IMG/VR virus record: IMGVR_UViG_3300028027_000225
Coordinates: 1-25,006 of that record
From: a virus
Strand: one strand, 5' to 3'
Length of the DNA: 25,006 nt
Shown: positions 317-20,568 of the stretch, in pieces
How positions within the stretch are numbered: position 1 is the stretch's first letter
Layout of the letters: each line of letters begins with the position of its first letter
Translations under genes and position numbers: made by a program
The notes under the pieces: model-generated
Told to the model about the DNA's origin: nothing
Seen by the model: only the letters and a program-made list of their open reading frames with translations
The model's database searches: none

Positions 317-325
317 CCAACCATA

Positions 326-333
326 TATTTATA
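326..333 (+). promoter_or_regulatory. Putative late promoter core TATTTATA
   Basis: The octamer TATTTATA ends 14 nt before the ATG at 348. It is one of eight identical octamers placed just upstream of virion genes in this window. Confidence 0.5.
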
Positions 334-347
334 TCTAAAAACCACAC

Positions 348-611
348 ATGGAAACAGTTACAACCAATACAGTTATATCCACTGACGAATTACAATCACT
401 TAGAGATATACAAAAACAAACTCAATCCCTGGTTCTCGAACTGGGGGAAATTGAGTTAATGCGAATTCAATTAGACGAAAGACACGCATCCGCTAAAATA
501 CAATTAACCGAGTTAAGCAAACGCGAATCCGAATTCAACCAATCGCTATACGAAAAATACGGTCAAGTAAATCTAAACCCGGAAACTGGCGAAATATTCC
601 CATTAACTTAA
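348..611 (+). CDS. Small coiled-coil protein, unknown function
   Basis: An 87-residue acidic, Gln/Glu/Lys-rich protein with no recognised domain. Residues about 12-68 look like a continuous amphipathic helix with leucine/isoleucine spacing suited to a coiled coil, and the C-terminus has the short motif NLNPETGEI. There are no cysteines, signal peptide or membrane segment. I chose the ATG at 348 because a TATTTATA element lies 14 nt upstream; the longer frame starting at 262 is in another frame and overlaps the fibre gene. Its place between a fibre gene and the sheath genes suggests a virion or assembly role, but that is inference only. Confidence 0.7.
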   Translation: METVTTNTVISTDELQSLRDIQKQTQSLVLELGEIELMRIQLDERHASAKIQLTELSKRESEFNQSLYEKYGQVNLNPETGEIFPLT

Positions 612-631
612 CATATAATTAAATATTCACA

Positions 632-639
632 TATTTATA
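632..639 (+). promoter_or_regulatory. Putative late promoter core TATTTATA
   Basis: TATTTATA ends 24 nt before the ATG of the first sheath gene, in an A/T-rich intergenic gap of 52 nt. Confidence 0.5.
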
Positions 640-663
640 ATTAAAATTAAACCATAATCAAAC

Positions 664-2364
664 ATGCCAACAACTATTGTATCACCAGGGGTAGCCATTA
701 ACGTAAACGATAATTCTGCAGTAACTTCCCAACCAATACAAGCGGGAGCAGCCATCATCGGACCAACAGTTAAAGGACCTGTAGGTATCCCAACCGTAGT
801 AACTACATATAGTGAATATCAAAATAAATTTGGAGATACATTAGTAAGTGGATCTCAAACATATTCATACTTGACGTCAATTTCAGCGTATAATTACTTC
901 AACAACGGAGGTAGTTCACTTCTAGTTACTCGCGTTGTAAGTGGCTCATTTACACCTGCTACAGCATCTATTCAAACAGCATTCGTATTAGAAACATTAT
1001 CCGAAGGCGAAATCATGAACAGTGTTGGTGCTGAAATCAGCGGTTCACTAGTAAGCGGATCTGCCGATAACTACAGATGGCAAATCACATCACCAAACAC
1101 GGCATCAGGTACATTCTCGCTACTAATTAGAAAAGGAGACGATTCAGCATCATCACCATCTATACTTGAGGCATACAACAACCTATCGCTAGATCCATTC
1201 TCGCCAAACTACATTGAAAAAATCGTTGGTAATACTACCGAAAACGTATCTGAAGACAACGGTGAATTTTACCTTGAACTAACTGGTAGTTACTTAAACA
1301 ATTCAAAATGCGTTCGTGTTAAACAAGTACTTACACCTACACCAAACTATTTAGACAACAACGGTTTAGCAAAACCACAATACACTAGTTCCATCCCTAC
1401 TTTAGCTAGTGGATCATTCGGTGGAGCAACAGGTAAAAACATACCAACTGGAACCGCAGCCAAATACTACGAGGCAATTAGTGATACAAATACACAAGGT
1501 TTACCAGCATCAGCATATACACAATCAATTGCATTATTAGCAAATAAAGATTCATACCGATTCAATTTCATCACTGTTCCAGGTTTAATTGGACGTAATT
1601 CATTCACTAACCACTACAACGTTATCAACACTAAATTGATACCTATGGTTACTGAACGTGGTGATACAATGGCTATAGTTGATGTAGTTGAATATGGTCA
1701 AAATTTAACCACTACAGTTAACGCAGCCGCAGCATTCGATACATCATTCGTAGCAACATATTGGCCTTGGGCTCAAACAATTGATCCAGCAACTGGACAA
1801 AACGTATGGGTACCTGCATCCACATTAATACCAGGTGTATATATGGCTAGTGACAGAGTTTCGTACCCATGGATAGCACCAGCTGGTACTAACAGAGGTG
1901 TTGTAACTAACGTAACTCGTGTTGAACGCGTAGTTACACAAAGCGGAAGAGACGCGCTATACGAAGCAAACGTAAACCCATTAGCAACACTACCAGGATA
2001 TGGTGTAGTTGTATATGGTCAGAAAACGCTACAAAAGAAAAATACCGCATTGGATCGTGTAAACGTTAGACGTTTATTAATCGAATTAAATAACTACATT
2101 GGTCAAATAGCACAATCATTAGTATTTGAACAAAATACAGCAAGTACACGTAATGAATTTTTAGCACAAGTAAATCCATATTTATCTACTATACAACAAC
2201 AACAAGGTCTGTACGACTTTAATGTAGTAATGGACGATACGAACAACACACCAACCGTAATAGACAACAACCAATTAGTAGGACAAATATATATCCAGCC
2301 AACAAAAACATCCGAATTTATATTACTGGAATTCAATATCCTACCAACTGGAGTAACAATTTAG
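664..2364 (+). CDS. Tail sheath protein, copy 1 (T4 gp18 family)
   Basis: A 566-residue sheath subunit that would polymerise around the tail tube and contract on infection. The N-terminus has the sheath hallmark SPGVAINVND followed by AAIIGPTVKGP, which begins the conserved beta-rich core. The C-terminal third carries VNPLATLPGYGVVVYGQKTL, RVNVRRLLIEL and LVGQIYIQPTKTSEFILLEF, the conserved subdomain that contacts the tube and interlocks neighbouring subunits in contractile sheaths. The middle is Ser/Thr/Asn-rich and variable, as expected for surface-exposed domains. It is slightly shorter than T4 gp18 (659 residues). A paralogue follows after 54 nt and has its own TATTTATA element, so the two could be expressed at different levels. 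Confidence 0.93.
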   Translation: MPTTIVSPGVAINVNDNSAVTSQPIQAGAAIIGPTVKGPVGIPTVVTTYSEYQNKFGDTLVSGSQTYSYLTSISAYNYFNNGGSSLLVTRVVSGSFTPATASIQTAFVLETLSEGEIMNSVGAEISGSLVSGSADNYRWQITSPNTASGTFSLLIRKGDDSASSPSILEAYNNLSLDPFSPNYIEKIVGNTTENVSEDNGEFYLELTGSYLNNSKCVRVKQVLTPTPNYLDNNGLAKPQYTSSIPTLASGSFGGATGKNIPTGTAAKYYEAISDTNTQGLPASAYTQSIALLANKDSYRFNFITVPGLIGRNSFTNHYNVINTKLIPMVTERGDTMAIVDVVEYGQNLTTTVNAAAAFDTSFVATYWPWAQTIDPATGQNVWVPASTLIPGVYMASDRVSYPWIAPAGTNRGVVTNVTRVERVVTQSGRDALYEANVNPLATLPGYGVVVYGQKTLQKKNTALDRVNVRRLLIELNNYIGQIAQSLVFEQNTASTRNEFLAQVNPYLSTIQQQQGLYDFNVVMDDTNNTPTVIDNNQLVGQIYIQPTKTSEFILLEFNILPTGVTI

Positions 2365-2396
2365 TATATTAACTCGAATTTACATAATTAACAATA

Positions 2397-2404
2397 TATT
2401 TATA
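2397..2404 (+). promoter_or_regulatory. Putative late promoter core TATTTATA
   Basis: TATTTATA ends 14 nt before the ATG of the second sheath gene. The downstream A-rich flank resembles that at 640-655. Confidence 0.5.
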
Positions 2405-2418
2405 ATCAAAATCAAACA

Positions 2419-4161
2419 ATGGGAAACTTTACAATATCTCCAGGAGTAACATTAAACGAGCTAGATAATTCATATCTATCAGGTCAGCCTATTCAGGTTG
2501 GTGCCGCTATAATTGGCCCAACAGTTAAGGGACCAGTTGAGGTTCCAACTGTAGTTACATCTTATTCAGAATACAAAAACGTATTCGGTGACATCATCAC
2601 TAGTGGAAGTGATGTTTATTCTTATTTCACATCAATTGCTGCATACAATTACTTCAACTACGGTGGTCAATCATTGCTAGTTGCTCGTGTTGTGTCTGGT
2701 TCATATGCTCCAGCTACATCATCTGTCATTGCAAATGATTCAGCATATGTGTTTGACGGTTATGTTAGTTCTTCATACGTAGCAGGCGGTGGAGTAAATG
2801 TATTCCAACTTGAAACACTAAGTGAAGGTGTAGACCAAAACAACGCAACATTAGGTACATCTGGTAGCTTAACTTTAGGCACAGCAAATAATATTCGATT
2901 TGAAATTTCATCACCAAACACAGCATCAGGTACATTTAATGTAATTGTTCGTCAAGGTAACGACAAGACAAACAAGAAAGTGGTACTTGAAGCATTCAAC
3001 GGTGTAAACTTAGATCCAAAATCACCAAACTACATTGCACGTGTAATTGGCGATACTAAATTAAACTACAACCCATCAACACTACAGATGGAATTCAGTG
3101 GTTCTTACCCTAACGCATCAAAATACATTCGTGTAGCTGCAGTTAACTCAACAACACCTGACTATTTAGACACAAACGGTCAACCAAAAACAGGATACGC
3201 AGCAAAAATACCAGCAGCACAATTAGGTGTATTTGGTGGCGCTACAGGTACTGTTAAAGGAGGTGCTAATTTCTACGATGCAATTAACTCATCAAACACA
3301 CAAGGTTTAGTTGCAGACAACTACACAAACATGATTAATCTATTGTCAAACAAAGACGAATATAGATTCAACATATTAACTACACCAGGTTTAACTAACG
3401 ACTTACACACATCAACAATATCTACAATTATCACCAACACACAAAACCGTGGAGACAATTTATATATCGTTGATTTAACTGATTACAATTCAACAGTCAG
3501 TGAAGCAGTCGCTCAAGCACAGACACGCGATAATTCATACGCAACTACTTACTGGCCATGGTGTAACATGATCGACCCAGCAACTGGAAAATACGTTTGG
3601 GTTCCTGCATCTACATTAATACCAGGTGTATACGCAAACAACGACAAAATTGCTGCTCCTTGGTTCGCACCAGCGGGTATCAACAGAGGTGGTTTAAACA
3701 ACGTATCTCGCGCTCAATACAAATTGTCTCAAGCACAAAAAGACGAATTGTACTTAAGCAACATCAACCCATTAGCAACAATGCCAAAAGTTGGTGTAGT
3801 AATTTATGGACAAAAAACGCTACAAAAAGGTACATCCGCACTAGACAGAGTAAACGTTAGACGTTTATTAATCGAATTGAAAGGATATATCGGTCAATTA
3901 GCAGACAACATCGTATTCGAACAAAACACAGAACGTACACGTTCATTGTTCTTGTCCCGTGTTAACCCATACTTAGAAAACATCCAACAAAAACAAGGTT
4001 TGTACGCATTCCGTATCGTAATGGATGACACTAATAATGGCCCAGATGTTATCGACAGAAACCAATTAGTAGGACAAATTTACATTCAACCAACTAAAAC
4101 AGCAGAATTTATTTCACTTGATTTCATTGTATTACCAACTGGAGCAGAATTTCCTGGGTAA
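2419..4161 (+). CDS. Tail sheath protein, copy 2 (T4 gp18 family)
   Basis: A 580-residue sheath paralogue. The N-terminus (SPGVTLNELDNSYLSGQPIQ then AAIIGPTVKGPV) and C-terminus (NPLATMPKVGVVIYGQKTL, RVNVRRLLIEL, DRNQLVGQIYIQPTKT) closely match copy 1. The middle differs much more and has an extra stretch near residues 95-125. Both conserved ends are intact with no frameshift, so this is a working paralogue and not a decaying duplicate. It may form a heteromeric sheath with copy 1, cap one end, or replace it; the sequence does not say which. The tail tube gene follows after 47 nt, the usual sheath-tube order. Confidence 0.93.
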   Translation: MGNFTISPGVTLNELDNSYLSGQPIQVGAAIIGPTVKGPVEVPTVVTSYSEYKNVFGDIITSGSDVYSYFTSIAAYNYFNYGGQSLLVARVVSGSYAPATSSVIANDSAYVFDGYVSSSYVAGGGVNVFQLETLSEGVDQNNATLGTSGSLTLGTANNIRFEISSPNTASGTFNVIVRQGNDKTNKKVVLEAFNGVNLDPKSPNYIARVIGDTKLNYNPSTLQMEFSGSYPNASKYIRVAAVNSTTPDYLDTNGQPKTGYAAKIPAAQLGVFGGATGTVKGGANFYDAINSSNTQGLVADNYTNMINLLSNKDEYRFNILTTPGLTNDLHTSTISTIITNTQNRGDNLYIVDLTDYNSTVSEAVAQAQTRDNSYATTYWPWCNMIDPATGKYVWVPASTLIPGVYANNDKIAAPWFAPAGINRGGLNNVSRAQYKLSQAQKDELYLSNINPLATMPKVGVVIYGQKTLQKGTSALDRVNVRRLLIELKGYIGQLADNIVFEQNTERTRSLFLSRVNPYLENIQQKQGLYAFRIVMDDTNNGPDVIDRNQLVGQIYIQPTKTAEFISLDFIVLPTGAEFPG

Positions 4162-4177
4162 AACTTGAAAATGTGAA

Positions 4178-4185
4178 TATTTATA
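4178..4185 (+). promoter_or_regulatory. Putative late promoter core TATTTATA
   Basis: TATTTATA ends 23 nt before the tube ATG. The surrounding bases AATATTTATAAACAAAA recur almost exactly at 8776-8792 before another virion gene. Confidence 0.55.
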
Positions 4186-4208
4186 AACAAAATTAAAACT
4201 TACAAAAC

Positions 4209-4697
4209 ATGCCAATATTAAATTCAAGTGAGATCTTTTACACTGCATTCGAACCTAAGCAGTCAAATCGATTCGTAATGTACATTGACGGTATACCTGC
4301 TTATTTAGTAAAAGGGGTATCTGCAATATCATTAGACCAAACACCAGTAGAATTAAACCACATTAACGTTCAACGTTTCGTTAAAGGTAAAACTAAATGG
4401 AGCACAATTGACTTAACATTATTCGAATCAATCACTCCATCTGGTGCACAAGCGGTAATGGAATGGATCCGTTTAGGTCACGAGTCAGTAACGGGTAGAG
4501 ATGGTTACTCTGATTTCTACAAGAAAGACTTGACATTCAATGTACTTGGACCAGTAGGCGATATCGTAAGTGAGTGGGTTGTTAAAGGTGCATTTCCAAC
4601 CAACGTTAATTTTGGCGACTATAGCTACGATGACGACGGAGTTGCAGTAAACATCAAAATGACAATCCGTCCTGATTACTGTGTATTAAACTTTTAA
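4209..4697 (+). CDS. Tail tube protein (T4 gp19 family)
   Basis: A 162-residue protein, nearly the length of T4 gp19 (163), directly after the sheath genes. It should stack as hexameric rings to form the inner tube through which DNA passes. Visible family features are FEPKQSNRFVMYIDGIPAYL near the N-terminus, the central loop WSTIDLTLFESITPSGAQAV and the C-terminal strand VAVNIKMTIRPDYCVL. Alternating hydrophobic beta strands and the absence of signal or membrane segments fit the tube fold. A strong terminator follows 24 nt after the stop, which closes the sheath-tube unit. Confidence 0.93.
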   Translation: MPILNSSEIFYTAFEPKQSNRFVMYIDGIPAYLVKGVSAISLDQTPVELNHINVQRFVKGKTKWSTIDLTLFESITPSGAQAVMEWIRLGHESVTGRDGYSDFYKKDLTFNVLGPVGDIVSEWVVKGAFPTNVNFGDYSYDDDGVAVNIKMTIRPDYCVLNF

Positions 4698-4721
4698 ATA
4701 TACACCGACATATATCATTCA

Positions 4722-4755
4722 ACCCCACACCAAAAATGTGGGGTTTTTTGTTTTT
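4722..4755 (+). terminator. Rho-independent terminator after the tail tube gene
   Basis: An 8-bp perfect GC-rich stem, ACCCCACA (4722-4729) with TGTGGGGT (4737-4744), a 7-nt loop, and a T-rich run (TTTTTTGTTTTT) to 4755. It is the clearest terminator in the window and separates the sheath/tube genes from the next unit. Confidence 0.9.
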
Positions 4756-4782
4756 CCTTGCCTACCTACCACACTCATTGTA

Positions 4783-4790
4783 TATTTATA
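4783..4790 (+). promoter_or_regulatory. Putative late promoter core TATTTATA
   Basis: TATTTATA lies just after the terminator and ends 14 nt before the ATG at 4805, as expected for a restart of transcription. Confidence 0.5.
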
Positions 4791-4804
4791 CCATATATTA
4801 CAAT

Positions 4805-5176
4805 ATGAAAAACCACCCTATCAAACAAATCATCCGCGAGGAAATCAAACGCATACTAAGCGAGGACTACCAAGACAAATACAAAATGTCTGGTGGATTA
4901 GTTACCAACCTAGAGTTACGTCCACAAAAAGAGATATTGTCCGACATCCGCGCAATCACTGGTATTACCATTGTATCTGAAAAGGAGATATTGCCATACA
5001 ACGAACAAGACAAACGTAACTTCAAGGCCATATTAACAGTAAAAGTAGACGGATACCCATTCATGAAATCTGGTGGATTCAACCGCGACAAAATGGACGA
5101 TATAGCAGCACAAATACGTAAAGTAGAAGGTGTTGTTAATTTCAGTATGAATTCTGAGACTGTCGCACCAATTTAA
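4805..5176 (+). CDS. Unknown 123-residue protein with N-terminal IREEIKRIL helix
   Basis: I start this gene at 4805, not at the ATG at 4736: the upstream ATG lies in the terminator hairpin and would add a hydrophobic, non-phage-like leader, while 4805 is 14 nt after a TATTTATA element. The protein opens with a charged amphipathic helix (HPIKQIIREEIKRILSED). The rest alternates strands and helices (EILSDIRAITGITIVSEKE, FKAILTVKVDGYPF, MDDIAAQIRKVEGVVNF) in a pattern suggestive of a small ferredoxin-like fold. I do not recognise a function. Its position among tail genes suggests a virion-related role. Similar short N-terminal helices open two other small proteins here (17077 and 23558). Confidence 0.75.
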   Translation: MKNHPIKQIIREEIKRILSEDYQDKYKMSGGLVTNLELRPQKEILSDIRAITGITIVSEKEILPYNEQDKRNFKAILTVKVDGYPFMKSGGFNRDKMDDIAAQIRKVEGVVNFSMNSETVAPI

Positions 5177-5192
5177 TATATGTATATCCGAC

Positions 5193-5204
5193 AAATAAAG
5201 TTAT
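5193..5204 (+). promoter_or_regulatory. AAATAAAGTTAT element
   Basis: An AAATAAAGTTAT element lies 16 nt before the ATG at 5221. The same element stands before several replication genes in this window; no TATTTATA is present here. Whether it is a promoter or a translation-start element is not known. Confidence 0.3.
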
Positions 5205-5220
5205 AAACAAAATAAAGTAT

Positions 5221-5949
5221 ATGAGTGAATTTAAAATCCCTACTGAAACAGTAGAGTTACCGTCCAAAGGACTATTGTACCCTAAAGATTCAGAGTTAGC
5301 TAAAGGTGTAGTTGAAGTTAAATACATGACTGCAGCACACGAAGACATCTTAACTAACCAAACGTACATCAAAAACGGTACCGTATTGGACAAGTTAATC
5401 AAAGCATTAATTGTTAGTCCAATTAACTACGACGATTTACTAATTGGTGACAAAAACGCAATCATGGTTGCTGCCCGCGTATTAGGTTACGGAAGTGAAT
5501 ATAAATTCACATACGGTGGTGTAGACCAAACAGTTGATTTAGCTGCATTAGACAACAAACCAGTACACGAGGCAATTGAAAAAGCAGACAAAAACGAATT
5601 TGAGTACGTGTTACCATACACTAAAAACACAATCACATTCAAACTATTAACACACAAAGACGAACAAGACATCCAGCGCGAACTAGACGGTTTGAAAAAA
5701 ATCAACAAAGACTCATCACCAGAACTATCCACACGTTGGAAATACATCATCACTTCGGTGGAAGGTAGACGCGAAAAGAAAGACATCCGCGAGTTCGTTG
5801 ACAACTACTTGATCGCTAAAGATTCACGCGCGTTACGCGAATATATTCGCGAATTACAACCGGATGTTGATTTAACATTCCACGTTGATGGCGCTGACGA
5901 CAAAGTAAACATTCCGATTGGTATTAGTTTCTTCTGGCCAGATATTTAA
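5221..5949 (+). CDS. T4 gp26-like baseplate hub / assembly protein
   Basis: A 242-residue soluble protein. The N-terminal segment VELPSKGLLYPKDS matches the LPSxGxxY opening of the T4 gp26-type base plate family, which also includes proteins encoded just before the tape measure in many T4-like phages. The middle is an alpha/beta region (MTAAHEDILTNQ, LIKALIVSP) and the C-terminus ends in IGISFFWPDI. In T4, gp26 takes part in hub assembly. A role as a tail assembly chaperone is also possible, because the gene and its neighbour (5956) occupy the slot directly upstream of the tape measure. The next start codon follows the stop after two codons in the same frame. Confidence 0.6.
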   Translation: MSEFKIPTETVELPSKGLLYPKDSELAKGVVEVKYMTAAHEDILTNQTYIKNGTVLDKLIKALIVSPINYDDLLIGDKNAIMVAARVLGYGSEYKFTYGGVDQTVDLAALDNKPVHEAIEKADKNEFEYVLPYTKNTITFKLLTHKDEQDIQRELDGLKKINKDSSPELSTRWKYIITSVEGRREKKDIREFVDNYLIAKDSRALREYIRELQPDVDLTFHVDGADDKVNIPIGISFFWPDI

Positions 5950-5955
5950 TATGAA

Positions 5956-6285
5956 ATGGACGTTAGTAACAAAACTAGAAATCAACTAGCATTTTTCGGC
6001 CTCACACCCGAATCAGCAGCTGAAACTAAACTAGCAATATATACTCAAATACACGAGATAGTGTTTCATGGTAAAGGCGGATACGATTGGCAGACTATAT
6101 ACAATATGCCAATCTGGCTCCGCCGATTTACTTTCAACCAAATCAACAAATTCTACAGCGACGAAAACGATCGCGCCAATGCTCAAACACAAGGTAACAA
6201 AACCACTGTAATTGATAGTGATGGTACCATTAAGGCACCAGAACATTTAAAACAGCATATGGATAAACGTACAAGTTACCAATAA
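5956..6285 (+). CDS. Small hub-assembly or tail-chaperone-like protein (gp51-like?)
   Basis: A 109-residue protein placed 6 nt after the gp26-like gene and 42 nt before the tape measure gene. Residues 48-67 (IYNMPIWLRRFTFNQINKFY) resemble the short PxxLRxFxxxKL helix seen in myovirus proteins encoded beside the tape measure, including hub-assembly factors such as T4 gp51 and second tail assembly chaperones. The C-terminal 40 residues look disordered. It is in the same frame as the preceding gene, separated by one TAA and two sense codons, so translational coupling is likely and low-level readthrough conceivable. The exact family is uncertain. Confidence 0.6.
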   Translation: MDVSNKTRNQLAFFGLTPESAAETKLAIYTQIHEIVFHGKGGYDWQTIYNMPIWLRRFTFNQINKFYSDENDRANAQTQGNKTTVIDSDGTIKAPEHLKQHMDKRTSYQ

Positions 6286-6301
6286 AGTTATATTTATTCC
6301 A

Positions 6302-6309
6302 TATTTATA
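6302..6309 (+). promoter_or_regulatory. Putative late promoter core TATTTATA
   Basis: TATTTATA ends 18 nt before the tape measure ATG. An AATAAAGTTAT element sits just upstream at 6281-6291, so both motif classes occur in this gap. Confidence 0.5.
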
Positions 6310-6327
6310 ACGAAAATATCCCCATAA

Positions 6328-8748
6328 ATGGCTGACTCAAATAAAGACATACGAGACACAAATGACTTACTACGCGAGCAATTAGAATTACTTAAACAAG
6401 TAAAAGACCTTCAGCAAGACTCATACGATGTATCTGCAGCTGCTGTTGATTCAATTAAAGAGGCTTTGGGTATTAATTCACGTCGTTCTACATTTGAATC
6501 TGCTACTTTAAAAACTAACAAATCGATCGCCCAAGCTATACTGGACCAAAAAACAGGGCTGCGCGATTTAGAATCTATTGGCCGTCAAATTAACAAAAAC
6601 CAGGATTTACTAAACAAGGCGAAAATAATTGAGAATGGCCTTACTAATAACTTGGGAGGGACCGATTTAAGTAGACTTTCTACATTCATCGAAATATATC
6701 AAGCTCAACAAAACCTTATACATGAGTTAGAAACAGCACATAATTTATCGTTAAGTGAAATTCAAAACAAACAACTAGCAATCAAACTTAATGATGAATT
6801 GTTAGACCAGCTCACCCAACAAATGGGTGTCCATGAACTTCAATTAGCATACACTAAACTAAATACATCTGAGCTAGAAAAGCAGCAAGACCTACGCAAA
6901 ACCGAATTAGGCATCCAGCAACAACTAGAAGAACAGTTAGGGTTAGTTGGTAAAATTGCTAAAACATTTGGTCATTTTAAAGGAATATCTGAAGATGTAA
7001 ACAAAGCACTAGCCGATACTACCAAGGAAATGCAACGAATGGCTACCGAAGGGGGTAAAGTAATTGGTAAATGGCAATCATTTGGTATGTTTGTGAGTAA
7101 TTTAGGTAAAAACCTAACCAAACATCTCACGGACCCATTAGTAATATTAACATCATTCGTTAGTGTCTTCAAAGACATAGACTCAGGAGCTGGTAATTTT
7201 GCCAAATCCATGAACATAACGTACAGCGACGCATTAAATGTACGTGGAGAAATGGCTGATCTTGCCTCATTGTCCGGTGATGTTGCATTAAATTCTAAAA
7301 ATTTACAAGAATCGTTAGGTTACATTAACCAACAACTAGGTACCAACGGAAAATTATCCGAGCAAGACCTAATCACATTTACCAAACTGCGTGAACAATC
7401 TGGACTAACCAATGAACAGTTGTTCGCTATGCAAAAATACACCATGGCTACTGGTGGTACATTAGAAGACAACGTAGCAACATTCCAGGCAACATCTAAA
7501 ATATTATCATACCAAAACAAAGTATCCATTAACACCAAACAATTAATGGTGGATATGGGTAATGTTTCAAACCGAACCAAGTTATCCATTGAGGGCGGAG
7601 CCGAAGGTTTAGCCAAAGCAGCATTTAATGCTAAATTAATGGGTGGTAATTTGGAACAAGTAGCGGCAATTGCGGACCAATTACTCAATTTTGAGTCATC
7701 CATTGAGGCTGAATTATCCGCTGAACTATTAACCGGTAAAGACATTACGCTAGAAAAAGCGAGACAAGCCGCGTTAAACAACGATTTAGCCACAGTTGCA
7801 TCGGAAATCACGGACCAAATAGGTTCCGCAGCTAAATACAGCGAAATGAACCGAATCCAGCAAGAAGCAATGGCTAAAGCCGTTGGTATGAATGCGGATC
7901 AGTTAGCGGATGTATTAGTTGAGCAAGAAGCAATCCGCGCCATAGGTGGTAAGTTAAGCGACGACGAACAACGTGCATTTGAAACAGCTAAGGGAAGATA
8001 TGGTCTTGAGCAAGCATCCAAAATGCTGAAAGAAGGACAGTTAGACCAATTAGTTGACCAGCAATCAATCCAGGACCGATTTAACCAATCCGTAGAAAAA
8101 CTCAAAGACATATTTGTGTCATTGGCTGAACCAGTATTGCAAGTAGTTTCACCTATAGTTAATTTAGTAAATCTGCTTGGTTCAATTCCTGGTTTGCTTC
8201 AAGGCATAATTGGTGGGTTTACTGCAATAAAATTACTTCAAATAGCTATAGGGGCACAAGAAAAAGTAAACATTGGTCTGCAAGCAACCATGAACTTAAT
8301 GAAGGGCAAAGAGCTAATTACCCAAATAGGTATAGCTACCGCATGGGCTTTAGCTAACCCATTCCAAGCAGCCCTTGGTATAGGAGCAGCAGCTGTTATA
8401 GGATCATCCATATATTCAGCTATGAAAGGAGCAACTCCCGTAGGTGATTTTAATTACTCAAACAAAACAGGTGAAACAACTATATCTACTAAAGAGGGGG
8501 GTCTATACTCCATATCAGACAATGATGAAATAGCAGTAGCACCTCGAATCAATACCAGATTGTCATCCCCACCTTCCCCCCAACCTACACAAGATAATTC
8601 AGCATTAATAGCTGAACTGCGGGCAATGCGTAGTATATTTGAAAAAAACCAAAACCGACCGATTTATACTGAGGTTAAAGTTGATGGTGAAAAAATTGCA
8701 ACTGCAACAAATGATAACAACCGTAAGAACAGTTACGCAATATCATAA
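6328..8748 (+). CDS. Tail tape measure protein
   Basis: An 806-residue protein that sets tail length and is expelled on infection. Residues 1-250 are long charged/Gln-rich helices (coiled coil, for example KQQDLRKTELGIQQQLEEQL). Residues about 280-590 form a helical domain with many Ala/Gln segments (for example LEKARQAALNNDLATVASEI). Residues about 597-704 are hydrophobic and could form two or three membrane-inserting helices (IVNLVNLLGSIPGLLQGIIG; FQAALGIGAAAVIGSSIYSA), as expected of a tape measure that enters the inner membrane. A short segment GLYSISDNDEIAVAP and a polar tail follow. It is the longest helical protein in the tail cluster and sits downstream of presumed chaperone genes, which supports the call. 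T4 gp29 is shorter (590 residues). Confidence 0.87.
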   Translation: MADSNKDIRDTNDLLREQLELLKQVKDLQQDSYDVSAAAVDSIKEALGINSRRSTFESATLKTNKSIAQAILDQKTGLRDLESIGRQINKNQDLLNKAKIIENGLTNNLGGTDLSRLSTFIEIYQAQQNLIHELETAHNLSLSEIQNKQLAIKLNDELLDQLTQQMGVHELQLAYTKLNTSELEKQQDLRKTELGIQQQLEEQLGLVGKIAKTFGHFKGISEDVNKALADTTKEMQRMATEGGKVIGKWQSFGMFVSNLGKNLTKHLTDPLVILTSFVSVFKDIDSGAGNFAKSMNITYSDALNVRGEMADLASLSGDVALNSKNLQESLGYINQQLGTNGKLSEQDLITFTKLREQSGLTNEQLFAMQKYTMATGGTLEDNVATFQATSKILSYQNKVSINTKQLMVDMGNVSNRTKLSIEGGAEGLAKAAFNAKLMGGNLEQVAAIADQLLNFESSIEAELSAELLTGKDITLEKARQAALNNDLATVASEITDQIGSAAKYSEMNRIQQEAMAKAVGMNADQLADVLVEQEAIRAIGGKLSDDEQRAFETAKGRYGLEQASKMLKEGQLDQLVDQQSIQDRFNQSVEKLKDIFVSLAEPVLQVVSPIVNLVNLLGSIPGLLQGIIGGFTAIKLLQIAIGAQEKVNIGLQATMNLMKGKELITQIGIATAWALANPFQAALGIGAAAVIGSSIYSAMKGATPVGDFNYSNKTGETTISTKEGGLYSISDNDEIAVAPRINTRLSSPPSPQPTQDNSALIAELRAMRSIFEKNQNRPIYTEVKVDGEKIATATNDNNRKNSYAIS

Positions 8749-8777
8749 AACTGGTTATTCAATTCAGTAATTAGCAA

Positions 8778-8785
8778 TATTTATA
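8778..8785 (+). promoter_or_regulatory. Putative late promoter core TATTTATA
   Basis: TATTTATA ends 17 nt before the ATG at 8803, in a context (AATATTTATAAACAAAA) nearly identical to that at 4176-4192. Confidence 0.55.
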
Positions 8786-8802
8786 AACAAAACTAAATTA
8801 CC

Positions 8803-9189
8803 ATGGGAATTAAAAACATGCTTCAAACACAAGGCTCTCCATTCGCTGCCGAAAAAAACGGAGGGACTATTTTACCAAACCCACTTGAATTCGTAAATTC
8901 AACGAACACAACATACCCATTAACACCTGGTTCATTGCATTACAATGCAACAACAAAAACACCAAGTTATTCAGTGGACGGTTCAAACCAAGCAGCAGTA
9001 AACGCGGATTTCATTAAGTACAATGATGGTGTAGCAAATCAATTACCAACACCTACGGCATTTGACTTAGAGGATTCAGTTACAGCTGACCCAACCAACA
9101 AACCAAAATACAAAACAAACAACGGTTCATATGCCAATACTTATTTAAAGGTATTAGGTAAAGCTGCATCATTTCCAATTAAAGACTAA
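8803..9189 (+). CDS. Unknown small virion-associated protein
   Basis: A 128-residue protein of unknown function, rich in Asn, Thr and Pro with little predicted helix after the first 10 residues. Recognisable pieces are LNPLEFVNS-like Pro/Asn turns, SLHYNATTKTPSYSVDGSN and FDLEDSVTAD. There is no signal or membrane segment. The start at 8803 is preferred to the ATG at 8818 because of its spacing to the TATTTATA element. It lies between the tape measure and a large baseplate protein, 6 nt ahead of the latter, so co-translation and a baseplate or tail-tip role are plausible but unproven. Confidence 0.7.
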   Translation: MGIKNMLQTQGSPFAAEKNGGTILPNPLEFVNSTNTTYPLTPGSLHYNATTKTPSYSVDGSNQAAVNADFIKYNDGVANQLPTPTAFDLEDSVTADPTNKPKYKTNNGSYANTYLKVLGKAASFPIKD

Positions 9190-9195
9190 TTCTTA

Positions 9196-11286
9196 GTGGG
9201 TATATTAACGTCATATATTGAAAATGGGACTAAACTCAAATCACTTAAATTTGGTGACGACAAGTTTACCTCCCAGCCTTTCATTCAAACACCAATACCT
9301 AGCGACTCAACAGTAGTAACTAAACCTGCTACTCCACTCGCTGCGTACGCTGATGGTGTTGTGCGTGGAGCATTGATATCCGTGCAGCGATCAGCGCGTG
9401 ACGTTGAACGTTTAACGAAATATATGGCTACACCAAGTGGTGTGCAATTCGCGCTAAAGCAAAACCTACTATCTCGCGTTGCGGTTGGTACCGAAACTAG
9501 TGGATTCTTCAACGAAGGTATATATACACCATTATCAACACTAGCACAAGCTGGTGTTGGTATTTTGGGTATACATTTAAACAAACAAGGACTTGACCCA
9601 ACTGGACTAACCAAACTATCGTTAAAAAAATACGGTAGTACGGTATACAATGCCAATTTAATGGATCCAAATACATTCACTGACAATAGGTTAGTTAATT
9701 TGCATTTTGAATCAATTGAAGAACCGTCGGAATATGACACTAACCTTTATACCTACAAAGGTGGCCCTGGATCCATATTAGGTATTGGTAGTACCAAAAT
9801 TAAATATGCTACAGAGGGAGACGGAATGGTACCATTACGAGTAATGGGGTCAAACGGTTTAAACCCAAAAACATATTTGGTACCTGGTGGAAAAGACAAA
9901 TTATTTTCACCATCAATAGACGACGATACATTTAAACAATCGTTGCGTGATAAATTTACACCAATACTAGGTGCGTCCGTTAAATACGATTTATACAACA
10001 AAACCACAATATTATCCACATTATCCAAATCTAAATCTAACCTTGACTGGTTAGTAAATGGTGAACCTACGTATAGTGTATATGAATCTGGTTCATTAAC
10101 ACCTAAACCAAATATATCTAGTTATTTAGTACCTGATAAAACTGGTAAAACAGGGGTTGGTTTATCGTATGCTTATAATTTAACTCAACGTATTGATTTA
10201 ACCACAGGTTCATATTATTCATCAATTAATGATAAATTAATAAATGCTGGTGCCGGTAGACAAATTGTAGATAAATTAAATTTTGATCAATATAACCCCC
10301 TCGACATATCACCGAAAATAGAGGGATATACTGAATATTCATCTGCCATTACTATAAATGTAGACAAAGCATCTAGTGATGCATCTGCAGAAAACAAATA
10401 CCTTTCACTAAACGCACAGACTGGTTCATATTTAGCCAATATAGACAAAAATGTAGGTTACTACCCAGGCCCTGACGGTAAAATGGTATTTGGTCCCGTT
10501 AACCTTAAAGGAGAAGCCAAGGGAATTGGTCCTGACTTTAGGAAAGTAGACAGAATTGTACGTGGATTTATTGACTATAGCGGATCATACGATTACATTA
10601 CAAAAAAATCCGAGGATATAATTAAAGATGGTGATTACTATAAAGATGACAATAGATTAGTAGATCAAGTATATTATACTTCAGGAAATAAACGTAAATC
10701 CCGTGACTTCGGAACAGGTGATGACCTCATCACGTTCCGTATAGACATCATTGACCCAACACACCCAAACAACAACCCAGAACCACTTACATTCAGAGCA
10801 TATATCGACAACCTGTCAGACAATTACAGTCCGGACTGGAATTCACAAACATATATGGGACGTGGTGAAAAATTCCACAAATACAATTCATTCGACCGTA
10901 AAATATCACTTGGATTTACTGTGGTAGCTGAAGGTGTACACCATAGAGACAAAATGTACAGTCATTTAAACCAATTAGCATCATCATTAGCACCAACTTA
11001 TACAGCACAAGGATATATGGCTGGTAATATCCACAAATTAACTGTGGGTAACTATATTAACGCTCAGTACGGTATAATTAACGGAATGACATATGAAATA
11101 ATGGAAGAGTCACCGTGGGATATAGAATCAGGTAAACAATTACCAATGTATATTAAAGTAACTGGATTCCAGTTCACACCAATACATAACTTCAGACCTG
11201 AGTACAAATATGTTGCTCCTTTATTTCCGTTAATTAAAGAAGAGAAAAATTCACCTAAATTCGTCAATCAACACAATCAAGCATAA
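9196..11286 (+). CDS. Large baseplate/tail structural protein, GTG start
   Basis: A 696-residue protein. The only start in frame after the preceding stop is a GTG at 9196, six bases after the upstream gene ends, so it is probably translated by coupling. The N-terminus has ILTSYIENGTKLKSLKFGDD, then a helix (RSARDVERLTKYMATPSGVQ) and FALKQNLLSRVAVG. Residues about 510-690 contain DDLITFRIDIIDP, FRAYIDNLSDNYSPDWNSQT, YMGRGEKFHKYNSFDRKISL and a closing GFQFTPIHNFRPEY. The strands and the pattern resemble tube-like (tail initiator) domains of baseplate hub proteins in contractile systems. That similarity is my inference; the safe call is a baseplate or tail structural protein. Confidence 0.7.
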   Translation: MGILTSYIENGTKLKSLKFGDDKFTSQPFIQTPIPSDSTVVTKPATPLAAYADGVVRGALISVQRSARDVERLTKYMATPSGVQFALKQNLLSRVAVGTETSGFFNEGIYTPLSTLAQAGVGILGIHLNKQGLDPTGLTKLSLKKYGSTVYNANLMDPNTFTDNRLVNLHFESIEEPSEYDTNLYTYKGGPGSILGIGSTKIKYATEGDGMVPLRVMGSNGLNPKTYLVPGGKDKLFSPSIDDDTFKQSLRDKFTPILGASVKYDLYNKTTILSTLSKSKSNLDWLVNGEPTYSVYESGSLTPKPNISSYLVPDKTGKTGVGLSYAYNLTQRIDLTTGSYYSSINDKLINAGAGRQIVDKLNFDQYNPLDISPKIEGYTEYSSAITINVDKASSDASAENKYLSLNAQTGSYLANIDKNVGYYPGPDGKMVFGPVNLKGEAKGIGPDFRKVDRIVRGFIDYSGSYDYITKKSEDIIKDGDYYKDDNRLVDQVYYTSGNKRKSRDFGTGDDLITFRIDIIDPTHPNNNPEPLTFRAYIDNLSDNYSPDWNSQTYMGRGEKFHKYNSFDRKISLGFTVVAEGVHHRDKMYSHLNQLASSLAPTYTAQGYMAGNIHKLTVGNYINAQYGIINGMTYEIMEESPWDIESGKQLPMYIKVTGFQFTPIHNFRPEYKYVAPLFPLIKEEKNSPKFVNQHNQA

Positions 11287-11307
11287 ACCCACCCACATAA
11301 TACTAAA

Positions 11308-11334
11308 AAAGCTTGGCCTAGCCAGGCTTTCTTT
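11308..11334 (+). terminator. Rho-independent terminator after the large baseplate gene
   Basis: A 10-bp stem with one G-T wobble, AAAGCTTGGC (11308-11317) with GCCAGGCTTT (11321-11330), a CTA loop, then CTTT. It lies 21 nt after the stop at 11286 and just ahead of the next TATTTATA element. The T-tract is short, so termination may be partial. Confidence 0.7.
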
Positions 11335-11344
11335 GTATATTCCA

Positions 11345-11352
11345 TATTTATA
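11345..11352 (+). promoter_or_regulatory. Putative late promoter core TATTTATA
   Basis: TATTTATA ends 12 nt before the ATG at 11365, immediately after a terminator, which fits a new transcript start. Confidence 0.55.
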
Positions 11353-11364
11353 CATAAACCACTC

Positions 11365-11676
11365 ATGGCTCGCTATACATCAATACCCGTTATCACTACA
11401 CAAGACAACCCAAAACGTAGATTCATCAACGTTAAATATCCCGATATTCCACGCGACTTTTCGGACACATACGTATACACAACACAAGGTGACCGCTACG
11501 ACATATTAGCCCAAACATACTATGGTAATTCAAGCCTGTGGTGGGTAATATCCAGAGCCAACCCATCCCAACCATCTGATTCAATCTACCCGGGTATTGG
11601 GGCACAAATCAGAATACCATCAGCATCACGCATCCCAACCATTTTAGGTACATTTGAAAATTTAAACAGAATATAA
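11365..11676 (+). CDS. LysM-like baseplate protein (gp53 / gpX type)
   Basis: A 103-residue protein. Residues about 37-88 match a LysM-type module: GDRYDILAQTYYGNSSLWWV, then ISRANPSQPSDSIYPGIGAQ and IRIPSAS. The pattern 'D-x-L-A-x-x-x-Y-G ... W-W-x-I-x-x-A-N-P ... P-G-x-x-I-x-I-P' is typical of small baseplate components such as P2 gpX and of the LysM-like domain of T4 gp53, which help hold the hub or wedges together. There is no signal peptide. The stop is 4 nt before the start of the hub gene, so the two are almost certainly co-translated. Confidence 0.8.
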   Translation: MARYTSIPVITTQDNPKRRFINVKYPDIPRDFSDTYVYTTQGDRYDILAQTYYGNSSLWWVISRANPSQPSDSIYPGIGAQIRIPSASRIPTILGTFENLNRI

Positions 11677-15327: not shown

Positions 15328-15350
15328 TATTTTATTCGTATCTTCAACCC

Positions 15351-16598
15351 ATGTTTTGGCTAATTGAGGATACAGATAAAATCGACATTTTATGTCGCAT
15401 ACGTCATAAAAACGTATACGTGGACATACTCCCTATATCCCACACTCACCACGCACAAGAAAACGAGATATGTGCAATATACCTCAAACCCACACAAAAC
15501 GACAAAGGATATATACTCCCGGTAAACCACAACGACACAATCAATTTACCAATTGAACTGATTCAAGAAGTACTGGACAGCATCGAAACAATACACGTAC
15601 ACGACAAAAAGGAATTCCTCCACTACTTCACACACAAAAGCATTGCTTGTCCTGTACCTGGAATACACGTTAAACTACCCACACATACATCAACACACGA
15701 ATATTTTTACCGTTTATATCCAGACCGAGCAGACGTTAATGCAATAATACCAATTGTAAAACATTACGAATGGTTTGAGCAACGCTTTAGCGTGTTACCC
15801 GAAACTAACACTACGCATTTCTACAATAAAGCTTGTATTGCATACAACATGCTAGAACGCAGTGGAATATCAGTTAATACAGGCGAGTATAAGCGATGCT
15901 TCGGAAAAGACGATACACAACGCGTCTACACACACTACAATTTAAATACTACAACCACTAGACCGTCAAATACGTTTGGTGGTATTAACTTTAATACATT
16001 AAGTAAAGACAATGGCGAACGAGAATGCTTTATACCGAACAACGATACTTTCATTGAGCTGGATGTTAGTGCTTACCATCCTATTCTTCTTGCACATTTG
16101 GTGGATCATGACTTTGGTGGGCAAGATGTGCATTTATATTTTGCGGACCTATATAAGGTGGATTACCACAAAGCAAAGGAGATCACTTTTCAGCAACTTT
16201 ACGGAGGAATTTGGAAACAGTACGAAAATTTAGTATATTTCAGTAAAGTAAAAAAATATACAGACACATTATGGCACCAATTCACCACTAACGGCTACAT
16301 TGAATGTCCATTATCGCAGTATAAATTTGAGCGTGATAAGTTGAGCGACATGAACCCACAAAAGCTACTCAACTACGTGTTGCAAAACTACGAGACCGCA
16401 ACTAACGTTAAACTAATGTGGAAAATATTTAAACTGTTGCGTGGTAAAAACACAAAACTTGTATTGTCCGTATACGACAGTTTCCTATTTGACGTTGACG
16501 AATCCGAAACAGAAACCATGTCGCAAATACTGGACGTATTTAAACAATGTAAACTAAATGTGAAAGCCAAAGCGGGTGACACGTATAATTTCAAATAA
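15351..16598 (+). CDS. Family A DNA polymerase, short form
   Basis: A 415-residue polymerase. Motif A is FIELDVSAYHPILLAHL with Asp238, comparable to DYSQIELRVLAH. A TTTTRPSN segment (Arg204) corresponds to the TGRxSS element before it. Motif B is KAKEITFQQLYGG (residues 274-286). Motif C is SVYDSFLF with Asp376 in place of the usual VHDE. Residues 1-160 occupy the place of a 3'-5' exonuclease domain (VYVDILPISH, GYILPVNHND, HVHDKKEFLHYF) but I see no DxE motif, so proofreading is probably absent or supplied elsewhere. It is much shorter than bacterial Pol I. It sits 23 nt after the last virion gene with no terminator between. It probably serves as the replicative polymerase alongside the UvsX and gp32-like proteins encoded downstream. 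Confidence 0.8.
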   Translation: MFWLIEDTDKIDILCRIRHKNVYVDILPISHTHHAQENEICAIYLKPTQNDKGYILPVNHNDTINLPIELIQEVLDSIETIHVHDKKEFLHYFTHKSIACPVPGIHVKLPTHTSTHEYFYRLYPDRADVNAIIPIVKHYEWFEQRFSVLPETNTTHFYNKACIAYNMLERSGISVNTGEYKRCFGKDDTQRVYTHYNLNTTTTRPSNTFGGINFNTLSKDNGERECFIPNNDTFIELDVSAYHPILLAHLVDHDFGGQDVHLYFADLYKVDYHKAKEITFQQLYGGIWKQYENLVYFSKVKKYTDTLWHQFTTNGYIECPLSQYKFERDKLSDMNPQKLLNYVLQNYETATNVKLMWKIFKLLRGKNTKLVLSVYDSFLFDVDESETETMSQILDVFKQCKLNVKAKAGDTYNFK

Positions 16599-16606
16599 AA
16601 TCAGTT

Positions 16607-17080
16607 ATGTATCCAACCTTAGAAGAAGCTCCGTATACGTATAATACGAGTCATGGCTATGACTATGACCTATTTATGAATACAGACTTAAACATGAACA
16701 ATCGTTTACTATGTACTTTCACCACACTCGGTGACCTAGACAACCTAATTGGTGGTCTTTCAAACAAGTACAGCATACTATACAACAAAATGTTCGTTTT
16801 GCACATTAAAAGCAACAACGAATATGTGGTAACATACAACATTGACCAAGGCAATGTAACAGACATACCAGAAAATACAATTTTAGTGCACCGCAAGAAA
16901 GAATTCAATGTCTTGTACACCATTAACTCATTAAACGAACTAATTAAACGTTTAAACGGTGGTGTAGTTGACCCAAAATTCCCAATTGACTGGCAACACT
17001 ACAAAAACAGCATATTGTTAACGCAAGAGGGGCAAATCAAAACACTCCAAACGCGCATATACAAAATAATTGAAATATGA
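16607..17080 (+). CDS. Unknown 157-residue phage protein
   Basis: No family recognised. The N-terminal 25 residues are Tyr/Asn/Asp-rich; the rest alternates strands and helices (LLCTFTTLGDLDNLIGGLSN, VLHIKSNNEYVVTYNI, TILVHRKKEFNVLYTINSLN) and ends in a segment with FPIDWQHYKNSILLTQEGQI. No signal peptide or membrane helix. It starts 8 nt after the polymerase stop, with AAATAAAATCAGTTATG as leader, and its stop overlaps the next start by ATGA. This tight link to the polymerase and to the genes that follow suggests a role in replication or its control, which is inference only. Confidence 0.7.
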   Translation: MYPTLEEAPYTYNTSHGYDYDLFMNTDLNMNNRLLCTFTTLGDLDNLIGGLSNKYSILYNKMFVLHIKSNNEYVVTYNIDQGNVTDIPENTILVHRKKEFNVLYTINSLNELIKRLNGGVVDPKFPIDWQHYKNSILLTQEGQIKTLQTRIYKIIEI

Positions 17081-17481
17081 TTTATACTGAAGAAGAACTT
17101 AGGATGCAATTATTGGCTGGAATCATCACTGAAGGTATGTTTAAAGACGCCATGAGTAAATTAAAATCTGGTGTTCACAAAGTTATACTTGGAGCTGCAT
17201 TATCCGTAGCGTTATCATTAGGTTCATGTTCCAAAGACAACCCAAAGTACATATACCAATACTCATACCAAACCGAAAACCAATTAATCTACAACAAATC
17301 AAACCAAATTGATACTAGAACAACAGCAATGTACCCAGTAGACCACCGGTTAAGTTCATCTGAAGTAGAGTCACTTAAACAAGAGCTAGACGCTCAGGCA
17401 CCAATCAACAATGACGCTAAAGTACCAGGAACATCTAAATTAGTGCTATACACTATAGATACTCAAGGCGAATGGATGTAA
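17077..17481 (+). CDS. Lipoprotein with an extra N-terminal helix; two possible starts
   Basis: A 134-residue frame overlapping the preceding gene by four bases (ATGA). Residues 1-25 are a charged helix (TEEELRMQLLAGIITEGMFK). Met26 (ATG at 17152) begins what looks like a complete lipoprotein signal peptide: basic start (MSKLKSGVHK), hydrophobic core (VILGAALSVALSLG), and lipobox LGSC with Cys51. The following SCSKDN is a typical Bacteroidota lipoprotein start. The mature part (about 83 residues) is Tyr/Gln/Ser-rich and unrecognised. Initiation at Met26 would give an exported lipoprotein; at Met1 the signal would be buried. A role at the cell envelope, such as superinfection exclusion or lysis control, is speculative. 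Confidence 0.7.
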   Translation: MIYTEEELRMQLLAGIITEGMFKDAMSKLKSGVHKVILGAALSVALSLGSCSKDNPKYIYQYSYQTENQLIYNKSNQIDTRTTAMYPVDHRLSSSEVESLKQELDAQAPINNDAKVPGTSKLVLYTIDTQGEWM

Positions 17482-18380: not shown

Positions 18381-18406
18381 TTCGTACACAAATTATTTAC
18401 TACTTA

Positions 18407-18418
18407 AAATAAAGTTAT
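18407..18418 (+). promoter_or_regulatory. AAATAAAGTTAT element at the uvsX start
   Basis: AAATAAAGTTATG reaches into the ATG of uvsX. TTCGTAC stands upstream at 18381-18387. Likely a middle-gene promoter part or a leader suited to initiation without Shine-Dalgarno pairing. Confidence 0.35.
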
Positions 18419-19511
18419 GGCTAAAGGAAGACAATCACTGTCAGCAGCTGCTGACCAAGCAATCAAAGCAAATTTCAGTCTAGACAAATTTAAGCAGAGT
18501 AAAGGATTGGCATCCAACGTAAAGTTCAAGGAACAACGTTGGATTCCTTTTTCTCCCGCCCTGCAAGACGCGTTATCCATTCCTGGTTGTCCTATGGGGC
18601 ACATCATGATGGTGCGAGGCCGTTCAAATACTGGAAAAAGTACTACATCAATCGAATTAGCTGTGAATGCACAAAAAATGGGTGTGTTACCCGTGTTAAT
18701 CATCACGGAAATGAAGCATGACTTCAAGCATTGGCGAACAATGGGCTTCGAAATGGAGGACGTTATTGACGAATCAACTGGCGAAATCACTGACCACACT
18801 GGATTCTTCATTTACCGCGACCGTAGCACATTAAATTCAATTGAGGATATTGCTACATTCATGATCGACTTATTAAACGAGCAGAAAAAAGGCAACTTAC
18901 CATACGACTTATTGTTCTTGTGGGATTCAGTTGGATCTATTGCTTGCGACATGAGCATTGAGAAAGGCACAAACAACCCTATGTGGAACAGTGGAGCTAT
19001 CGCTACGCAATTTGGTAATTTCATTAACCAACAAATTGTATTGTCGCGTAAGGAATCATCCAAATACACCAATACATTCTTAATCATCAACAAAACAGGT
19101 GTAGCTCCAGCATTAACACCAATGTCTCAACCTCGTATGACCAATAAAGGAGGGGATACGTTTTACTACGATGCATCGTTATGTTTAACATTTGGTAATA
19201 TTACCAATGCCGGTACATCAAAAATCAACGCAACCAAAGACAAGAAAAAAGTAGAATTCGCGTTGCGTACTAAAATTGCATGTGATAAAAACCACATCAA
19301 CGGTATTACCACAACTGGTACCATTATTTCAACCACACACGGTTTCATTAAGGACGACCCGAACGCAATCAAAAAATACAAAGAAGAACATTCGCACGAA
19401 TGGGTGGACATTTTGGGTGCTGGAACATATGGTATCGACACAGACGATTCAGAATGGGGAGAAAAACAGGACAGTTACCCTACACCAGACGAAATTGACG
19501 CAATAATTTAA
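18417..19511 (+). CDS. uvsX: UvsX recombinase (RecA family)
   Basis: A 364-residue RecA-fold ATPase that forms filaments on single-stranded DNA and drives strand invasion for recombination-dependent replication. Walker A is GRSNTGKST (residues 68-76, Lys74). The likely catalytic Glu is Glu98 in IITEMKHD. Walker B is LLFLWD, Asp170. The C-terminus is acidic (DTDDSEWGEKQD). The length is close to T4 UvsX (391). It lies between the gp32-like gene and the 5' nuclease gene, as in a T4-type replication/recombination cluster; UvsX displaces gp32 from single strands with a mediator (UvsY) that is not visible in this window. Confidence 0.92.
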   Translation: MAKGRQSLSAAADQAIKANFSLDKFKQSKGLASNVKFKEQRWIPFSPALQDALSIPGCPMGHIMMVRGRSNTGKSTTSIELAVNAQKMGVLPVLIITEMKHDFKHWRTMGFEMEDVIDESTGEITDHTGFFIYRDRSTLNSIEDIATFMIDLLNEQKKGNLPYDLLFLWDSVGSIACDMSIEKGTNNPMWNSGAIATQFGNFINQQIVLSRKESSKYTNTFLIINKTGVAPALTPMSQPRMTNKGGDTFYYDASLCLTFGNITNAGTSKINATKDKKKVEFALRTKIACDKNHINGITTTGTIISTTHGFIKDDPNAIKKYKEEHSHEWVDILGAGTYGIDTDDSEWGEKQDSYPTPDEIDAII

Positions 19512-20548: not shown

Positions 20549-20568
20549 ATCATTCGTACATTTAATAC

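What the first reader, a model, noticed from the sequence alone, without database searches (positions are those of the whole stretch)
326..11352. Eight TATTTATA octamers mark virion genes: a likely late promoter that mirrors T4's
TATTTATA occurs at 326, 632, 2397, 4178, 4783, 6302, 8778 and 11345, each 12-24 nt before a virion-gene start codon; the replication module has none in intergenic DNA. It is the reverse complement of the T4 late promoter core TATAAATA. Either this phage's late sigma reads the opposite-sense octamer, or the sites fire in the other direction; fixed spacing to + strand genes favours the first. No upstream -35-type box is seen.
Basis: partly seen in the sequence, partly recalled or inferred. 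Interest (0 to 1): 0.6.

Follow-up and report, generated by a model that had tools for sequence, protein, structure and literature searches.

The report
Late promoter of T4-like Bacteroidota phages
A nine-base DNA signal, ATATTTATA, sits in front of the particle-building genes of a large group of T4-like phages that appear to infect Bacteroidota; it looks like the group's late promoter, a two-base variant of T4's rather than T4's signal turned round, and the same phages carry an unannotated gene that is a likely distant relative of the T4 late sigma factor.

Summary
All eight octamers are at the stated places, 12-24 nt before a start codon in the virion block; none lies upstream of a replication gene. 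The true element is longer, ATATTTATAA, with no -35 box and an A-rich downstream stretch. It precedes the tail-tube gene in 80 of 80 relatives. Across the window, its relatives and long contigs, it precedes 275 of 597 virion genes and 0 of 84 replication/nucleotide genes. It is the most over-represented word upstream of genes (ATATTTATAA 314 seen, 3.7 expected; reverse complement 2).

The 'mirror of T4' reading is misleading. TATTTATA and TATAAATA share six of eight bases in the same sense and differ only in the central pair (TT for AA). Being reverse complements follows automatically.

Best explanation: a T4-like late promoter (-10-type element only), read towards the downstream gene. The likely reader is an unannotated gp55-like sigma (immuto gp118 family), found in at least 377 contigs. 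That gene never has the octamer upstream (0/80), but the next gene nearly always does (71/77). Replication genes instead carry a host-like -33/-7 promoter. The promoter is well supported by sequence; the sigma is probable; no transcription data exist.

The parts
325..333 (+). late promoter core ATATTTATA, 14 nt before ORF 348-611 (function unknown, virion block)
631..639 (+). late promoter core ATATTTATA, 24 nt before tail sheath gene 664-2364
2396..2404 (+). late promoter core ATATTTATA, 14 nt before second tail sheath gene 2419-4161
4177..4185 (+). late promoter core ATATTTATA, 23 nt before tail tube gene 4209-4697; octamer present at this gene in 80 of 80 relatives
4721..4745 (+). terminator-like hairpin just upstream of the octamer at 4783
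4782..4790 (+). late promoter core ATATTTATA, 14 nt before ATG at 4805 (ORF 4805-5176, function unknown)
6301..6309 (+). late promoter core ATATTTATA, 18 nt before ORF 6328-8748 (tape-measure position; no PHROG match)
8777..8785 (+). late promoter core ATATTTATA, 17 nt before ORF 8803-9189 (function unknown)
11308..11330 (+). terminator-like hairpin just upstream of the octamer at 11345
11344..11352 (+). late promoter core ATATTTATA, 12 nt before baseplate-wedge-like gene 11365-11676
15335..15347 (+). contrast element: early-class box TTCGTATCTTCAA before DNA polymerase gene 15351-16598
18381..18393 (+). contrast element: early-class box TTCGTACACAAAT before UvsX/RecA-like gene 18417-19511
20553..20565 (+). 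contrast element: early-class box TTCGTACATTTAA before DnaB-like gene 20587-21951

Best explanation
The octamer is the core of a phage late promoter, 5'-A TATTTATA A[T/C]AAAA-3', read in the sense of the gene that follows. It takes the place of the -10 element and there is no -35 element. By analogy with T4 (box at about -13 to -6), transcription should start about 6 nt after the octamer and give a short A-rich leader. It differs from T4's late box only in the two central bases (TT for AA). It is most likely read by a phage-encoded, gp55-like sigma (immuto KNV73_gp118 family) bound to the host RNA polymerase core. Replication genes use a different, bipartite, host-like promoter, TTG-N16-TTCGTATATTTA. 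Shown by sequence: position, orientation, gene-class restriction, consensus, lack of a -35 element, conservation, and presence of the sigma-like gene in relatives.
For: Exact octamer 13-27 nt before the tail-tube gene in 80/80 relatives while flanks diverge. ATATTTATAA is the top over-represented word upstream of genes: 314 against 3.7 expected, reverse complement 2. Inside genes the two strands are equal, 82 and 87. 275/597 virion genes against 0/84 replication genes, Fisher 3e-21. No -35 element, A-rich downstream stretch, as described for T4 late promoters (PMC2988020). Terminator-like hairpins enriched just upstream of octamers. In Mel-JY01 the box stays and the leader lengthens to make room for SD-like sequences. 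gp55 model hits only one gene per record, in six records, always the same orthologue; Sigma70_r2 hits it too in two records; profile comparison P=1e-4. Sigma gene 0/80 with octamer, next gene 71/77. A distinct bipartite promoter at replication genes.
Against: No transcription data. The sigma assignment rests on weak scores: E 0.0003-0.009 per record; profile comparison with a second alignment gives only P=0.005; no significant PDB fold match. Most virion genes (322 of 597) lack their own octamer, and the major capsid gene lacks it in 11/11, so read-through must be assumed. LR756508 has a sigma homologue but no octamer near its sheath gene. The window is a fragment in which no sigma gene was seen. 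Related sequences are not independent, so the Fisher value is not a true probability.
Confidence: 0.82

Rival explanations
1. The octamer is a late promoter, but it is read by a host sigma or by host holoenzyme modified by another phage protein; the gp118 family is not the reader.
For: The gp118 match to gp55 is weak. In register, TATTTATA shares four of the six defined bases of the Bacteroidota -7 box TANNTTTG (consensus from PMC6847099).
Against: The TTTG end and a -33 TTG are missing at octamer sites, while the early-class sites have TTG at one exact offset in 25/37. gp118 is the only gp55-model hit in each record with a hit and lies immediately before an octamer-bearing gene in 71/77 cases.
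Confidence: 0.13
2. The octamer is an mRNA-leader signal (translation enhancer, processing or stability site), not a promoter element.
For: It lies close to start codons in phages whose likely hosts do not use Shine-Dalgarno sequences (PMC6847099).
Against: Distance to the start codon varies from 6 to 44 nt; Mel-JY01 keeps the box but 32-37 nt away with SD-like sequence in between; it is confined to virion genes and absent from 84 replication genes that are translated by the same ribosomes; it tends to follow terminators.
Confidence: 0.04
3. The octamer is an upstream activator box (like T4's MotA box at -30), with a separate -10 element downstream.
For: Some phages place a sequence-specific activator site upstream of a -10 element (established for T4 middle promoters).
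Against: No second conserved element lies 9-40 nt downstream, only A-richness; with start codons often 12-17 nt away there is no room for a -10 element and a start site.
Confidence: 0.03
4. The sites are T4-type TATAAATA promoters that fire on the opposite strand.
For: The reverse complement of the octamer is exactly the T4 core.
Against: Nearly all genes are co-directional, yet the asymmetry is 351 to 4 in the sense of the downstream gene; the extended consensus (5' A, 3' A-rich) is oriented the same way; such promoters would run antisense into the preceding gene.
Confidence: 0.02

Closest known systems
T4 late promoter (TATAAATA) with gp55, gp33 and gp45
   Same: 8-bp TATA-type box, no -35 element, AT-rich downstream, in front of virion genes; six of eight bases identical in the same sense; a gp55-like gene in the same phages.
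   Different: Central TT instead of AA, a strong 5' A, shorter leaders in the Flavobacterium-type phages; gp55-like protein is longer (232 aa, extra C-terminal domain) and very divergent; no gp45 or gp44 detected in the complete immuto genome.
Cyanophage late promoter (NATAAATA; S-PM2, Syn9)
   Same: T4-like phages, late box upstream of structural genes (PMC2984593).
   Different: Cyanophages keep the AA centre; DSL-LC02 has 4 TATAAATA and 0 TATTTATA sense-upstream.
Bacteroidota primary promoter (-33 TTTG / -7 TANNTTTG)
   Same: The early-class promoter of these phages (TTG-N16-TTCGTATATTTA) resembles it in spacing and -7 core.
   Different: The late octamer lacks the -33 part and the TTTG end.

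Membership tests
T4-type late promoter (functional class) | TATA-type octamer upstream of late/virion genes and not of early genes | tested here: met
   275/597 virion genes, 0/84 replication genes
T4-type late promoter (functional class) | no conserved -35 element; A/T-rich downstream | tested here: met
   profile of 249 sites
T4-type late promoter (functional class) | consensus TATAAATA in the sense strand | tested here: not met
   after a leading A, TAT-TT-ATA in 351 upstream regions, TAT-AA-ATA in 6
T4-type late promoter (functional class) | RNA starts about one helical turn downstream, late in infection | not testable with these tools
   no transcript data held
gp55 family of late sigma factors | sequence match to gp55 / sigma region 2 | tested here: inconclusive
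   weak but consistent; no significant fold match
gp55 family of late sigma factors | binds host RNA polymerase core and directs it to the late box | not testable with these tools
   biochemistry needed
T4 late transcription system | gp45 sliding clamp as activator | tested here: inconclusive
   phrog_223 finds no gp45 in immuto, G001, G002 or Mel-JY01; gp44 loader present in G002 and Mel-JY01, absent in immuto; a divergent clamp could be missed
T4 late transcription system | gp33 co-activator | not tested
   no gp33 model was searched
Bacteroidota primary promoter | -7 TANNTTTG with -33 TTTG | tested here: not met
   Octamer sites show no -33 TTG peak (at most 15/249 at any offset), while early-class sites have TTG at one exact offset in 25/37

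The most novel reading that the evidence does not exclude
The gp118 family is a single-chain late sigma: a gp55-like region-2 domain plus a C-terminal helical domain acting as region 4. It drives clamp-independent late transcription from TATTTATA. That would be a natural counterpart of the fused late sigma that the T4 literature says has not been found (PMC2988020).
Probability: 0.2. Interest if true: 0.75.

Novelty: new variant of a known kind. Interest (0 to 1): 0.56.

Why it matters
It gives a clear late-promoter signature and a candidate late sigma for a large and mostly unannotated group of T4-like phages (hundreds of IMG/VR contigs; cultured member immuto). It allows early and late genes to be read from sequence alone. 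It also makes a T4 question testable: how a late sigma and its box change together (AA to TT), and whether late transcription can run without the gp45 clamp.

Tried and rejected
Whole-genome count for the window: G000 is only the 25-kb fragment. PDB sequence search with profiles of the sigma candidate gave no sigma. Pfam on the sigma candidates showed only a weak Sigma70_r2 in LR756508. Fold searches gave no significant PDB match; sigma factors recur among the weak hits, and most named top viral hits are sigma-like. Sigma region 4 (PF04545) found nothing in the C-terminal half. Motif discovery near the LR756508 sheath gene found no clear box. Literature: TATTTATA occurs in 42 held papers; none of the 40 listed titles concerns a phage promoter, and the papers were not read. 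The tool's 'reversed pattern' control (ATATTTAT) is not a control here, because it lies inside ATATTTATA. The idea that a TATAAT -10 box overlaps the octamer was dropped because the window's own sites do not keep it.

Full report
OBSERVATION. Each is preceded by A, so the unit is at least ATATTTATA. The gaps to the start codons are 14, 24, 14, 23, 14, 18, 17 and 12 nt. Two more octamers lie inside genes (12623 and 21549) and behave as background. By count the excess over shuffles is moderate (10 against 3.0). By placement it is strong: 8 of 24 upstream windows against 0.34 expected (maximum 3 in 2000 shuffles), and virion block 8/13 against replication block 0/11.

CONTEXT. The window is a 25,006-base virus record. 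PHROGs identifies two tail sheath genes, tail tube, baseplate hub and wedge, then DNA polymerase, SSB, UvsX-like, exonuclease, DnaB-like and both ribonucleotide reductase subunits. The closest cultured phage is Flavobacterium phage immuto (sheath 50% identity). The host is therefore probably Bacteroidota; this is an inference.

FAMILY EVIDENCE. Eighty relatives found through the tail tube protein (69-95% identity) all carry the exact octamer 13-27 nt before the tube ATG, while the flanks diverge. Immuto has it before terminase, portal, sheath, tube, hub and tape measure genes. In 82 sequences (1.1 Mb) it lies within 60 nt upstream of a same-direction gene 368 times, against 43 for TATAAATA, while inside genes the two strands are equal, 82 and 87. 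A word count without prior choice ranks ATATTTATAA first: 314 against 3.7 expected, reverse complement 2. Of all TAT-NN-ATA forms after A, TT has 351, GT 23 and AA 6. Genes assigned to classes by BLAST show 275 of 597 virion genes and 0 of 84 replication or nucleotide genes with the octamer. This class test uses annotated immuto and window genes as references, and related sequences are not independent.

ANATOMY. On 249 non-redundant sites the element is A-TATTTAT-A-A-[T/C]-A-A-A-A. There is no conserved element from -60 to -6, only a weak T preference at -5 and -4, and an A-rich stretch follows. Positions 1-7 of that profile are fixed by how the sites were picked; the substitution counts are the unbiased test. 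Terminator-like hairpins precede octamers more often than control regions (21/249 against 32/938), including at 4721 and 11308 in the window.

WHY NOT A MIRROR. TAT-TT-ATA and TAT-AA-ATA are the same octamer in the same sense except for the two central bases, and that exchange always makes the reverse complement. In the T4 control the box is TATAAATA on the sense strand of the late block (13 + strand, 3 - strand). In a cyanophage that has gp55 the counts are TATAAATA 4 and TATTTATA 0 sense-upstream; Listeria LIS04 has neither and Streptococcus GXN1 has one TATTTATA, at similar G+C.

PROMOTER, NOT LEADER SIGNAL. Microcystis phage Mel-JY01 carries the sigma homologue and ATATTTAT[A/G] at 32-37 nt before tail and other late-block genes, with GGAG-type SD-like sequences in between. 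The box keeps its sequence while the leader length changes. The literature describes T4 late promoters as an 8-bp TATA box about one turn upstream of the start, with no conservation at -35 (PMC2988020).

EARLY CLASS. Upstream regions without the octamer are enriched in TTCGTATATTTA (TCGTATATT 21 against 0.2 expected, reverse complement 0). TTG sits at one exact offset, 19 nt before TTCGTA, in 25 of 37 sites. Window copies precede the DNA polymerase, UvsX-like and DnaB-like genes. This resembles the Bacteroidota -33/-7 promoter (PMC6847099). It is a likely early or middle class; the timing is inferred.

READER. The T4 gp55 family model phrog_234 (identified) gives a single hit in immuto (gp118, 'hypothetical protein'), G001 and G002, and in three of ten further records, always in orthologues. 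E-values are 0.0003-0.009 per record. Sigma70 region 2 hits the same gene in two records. Profile comparison with gp55 homologues gives P=1e-4 with one alignment and 0.005 with another. At least 377 contigs carry the gene, as do Mel-JY01 and LR756508. The gene never has the octamer upstream (0/80), while the next gene has it in 71/77. AlphaFold gives two helical domains; the N-terminal one alone is confident (pLDDT 87). Its top PDB match is a WhiG sigma complex, but no match is significant. I therefore call it a probable gp55-like sigma, not a proven member. In G001 the gene is split by a frameshift.

DIFFERENCES FROM T4. Immuto, a complete genome, has no detectable gp45 or gp44, so clamp coupling as in T4 is not shown. 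gp118 has a C-terminal half not covered by the gp55 alignment; whether it serves as region 4 is open (PF04545 finds nothing).

LOOSE ENDS. The major capsid gene lacks the octamer in 11 of 11 cases. LR756508 has the sigma homologue but no octamer near its sheath gene. No transcription data exist for any of these phages in the material held.

Noticed in passing
15335-15347, 18381-18393, 20553-20565; family sites: A second, bipartite promoter class (TTG-N16-TTCGTATATTTA) precedes replication genes; it resembles the Bacteroidota -33/-7 promoter and is probably the early class.
   Followed up: partly
11333-11352; immuto NC_055915 128566-128579: Places where an early-type box and the late octamer overlap or adjoin (TTTGTATATTCCATATTTATA; TTCGTATATTTATA), possibly genes expressed in both phases.
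   Followed up: no
664-2364 and 2419-4161: Two tandem tail sheath genes, each with its own octamer.
   Followed up: no
immuto 126896-128506 and orthologues: The major capsid gene lacks the octamer in 11 of 11 relatives; it is probably read from an upstream promoter.
   Followed up: partly
23833-24945: The ribonucleotide reductase large-subunit ORF is short (370 aa) and its C-terminal part matches a family labelled DNA helicase (phrog_16259); possible intein or split gene.
   Followed up: no
17077-17481: Small protein with a lipobox-like LGSCSKDN segment after a hydrophobic stretch, among replication genes; possible lipoprotein.
   Followed up: no
L203 (LR756508, 484 kb): An uncultured jumbo phage carries a 40%-identical gp118 homologue but no octamer near its sheath gene; its late box, if any, is unknown.
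   Followed up: partly
G002:56981-57706: ORF that looks by eye like a divergent sliding clamp, 3.5 kb before a gp44-like clamp loader; not recognised by phrog_223.
   Followed up: partly
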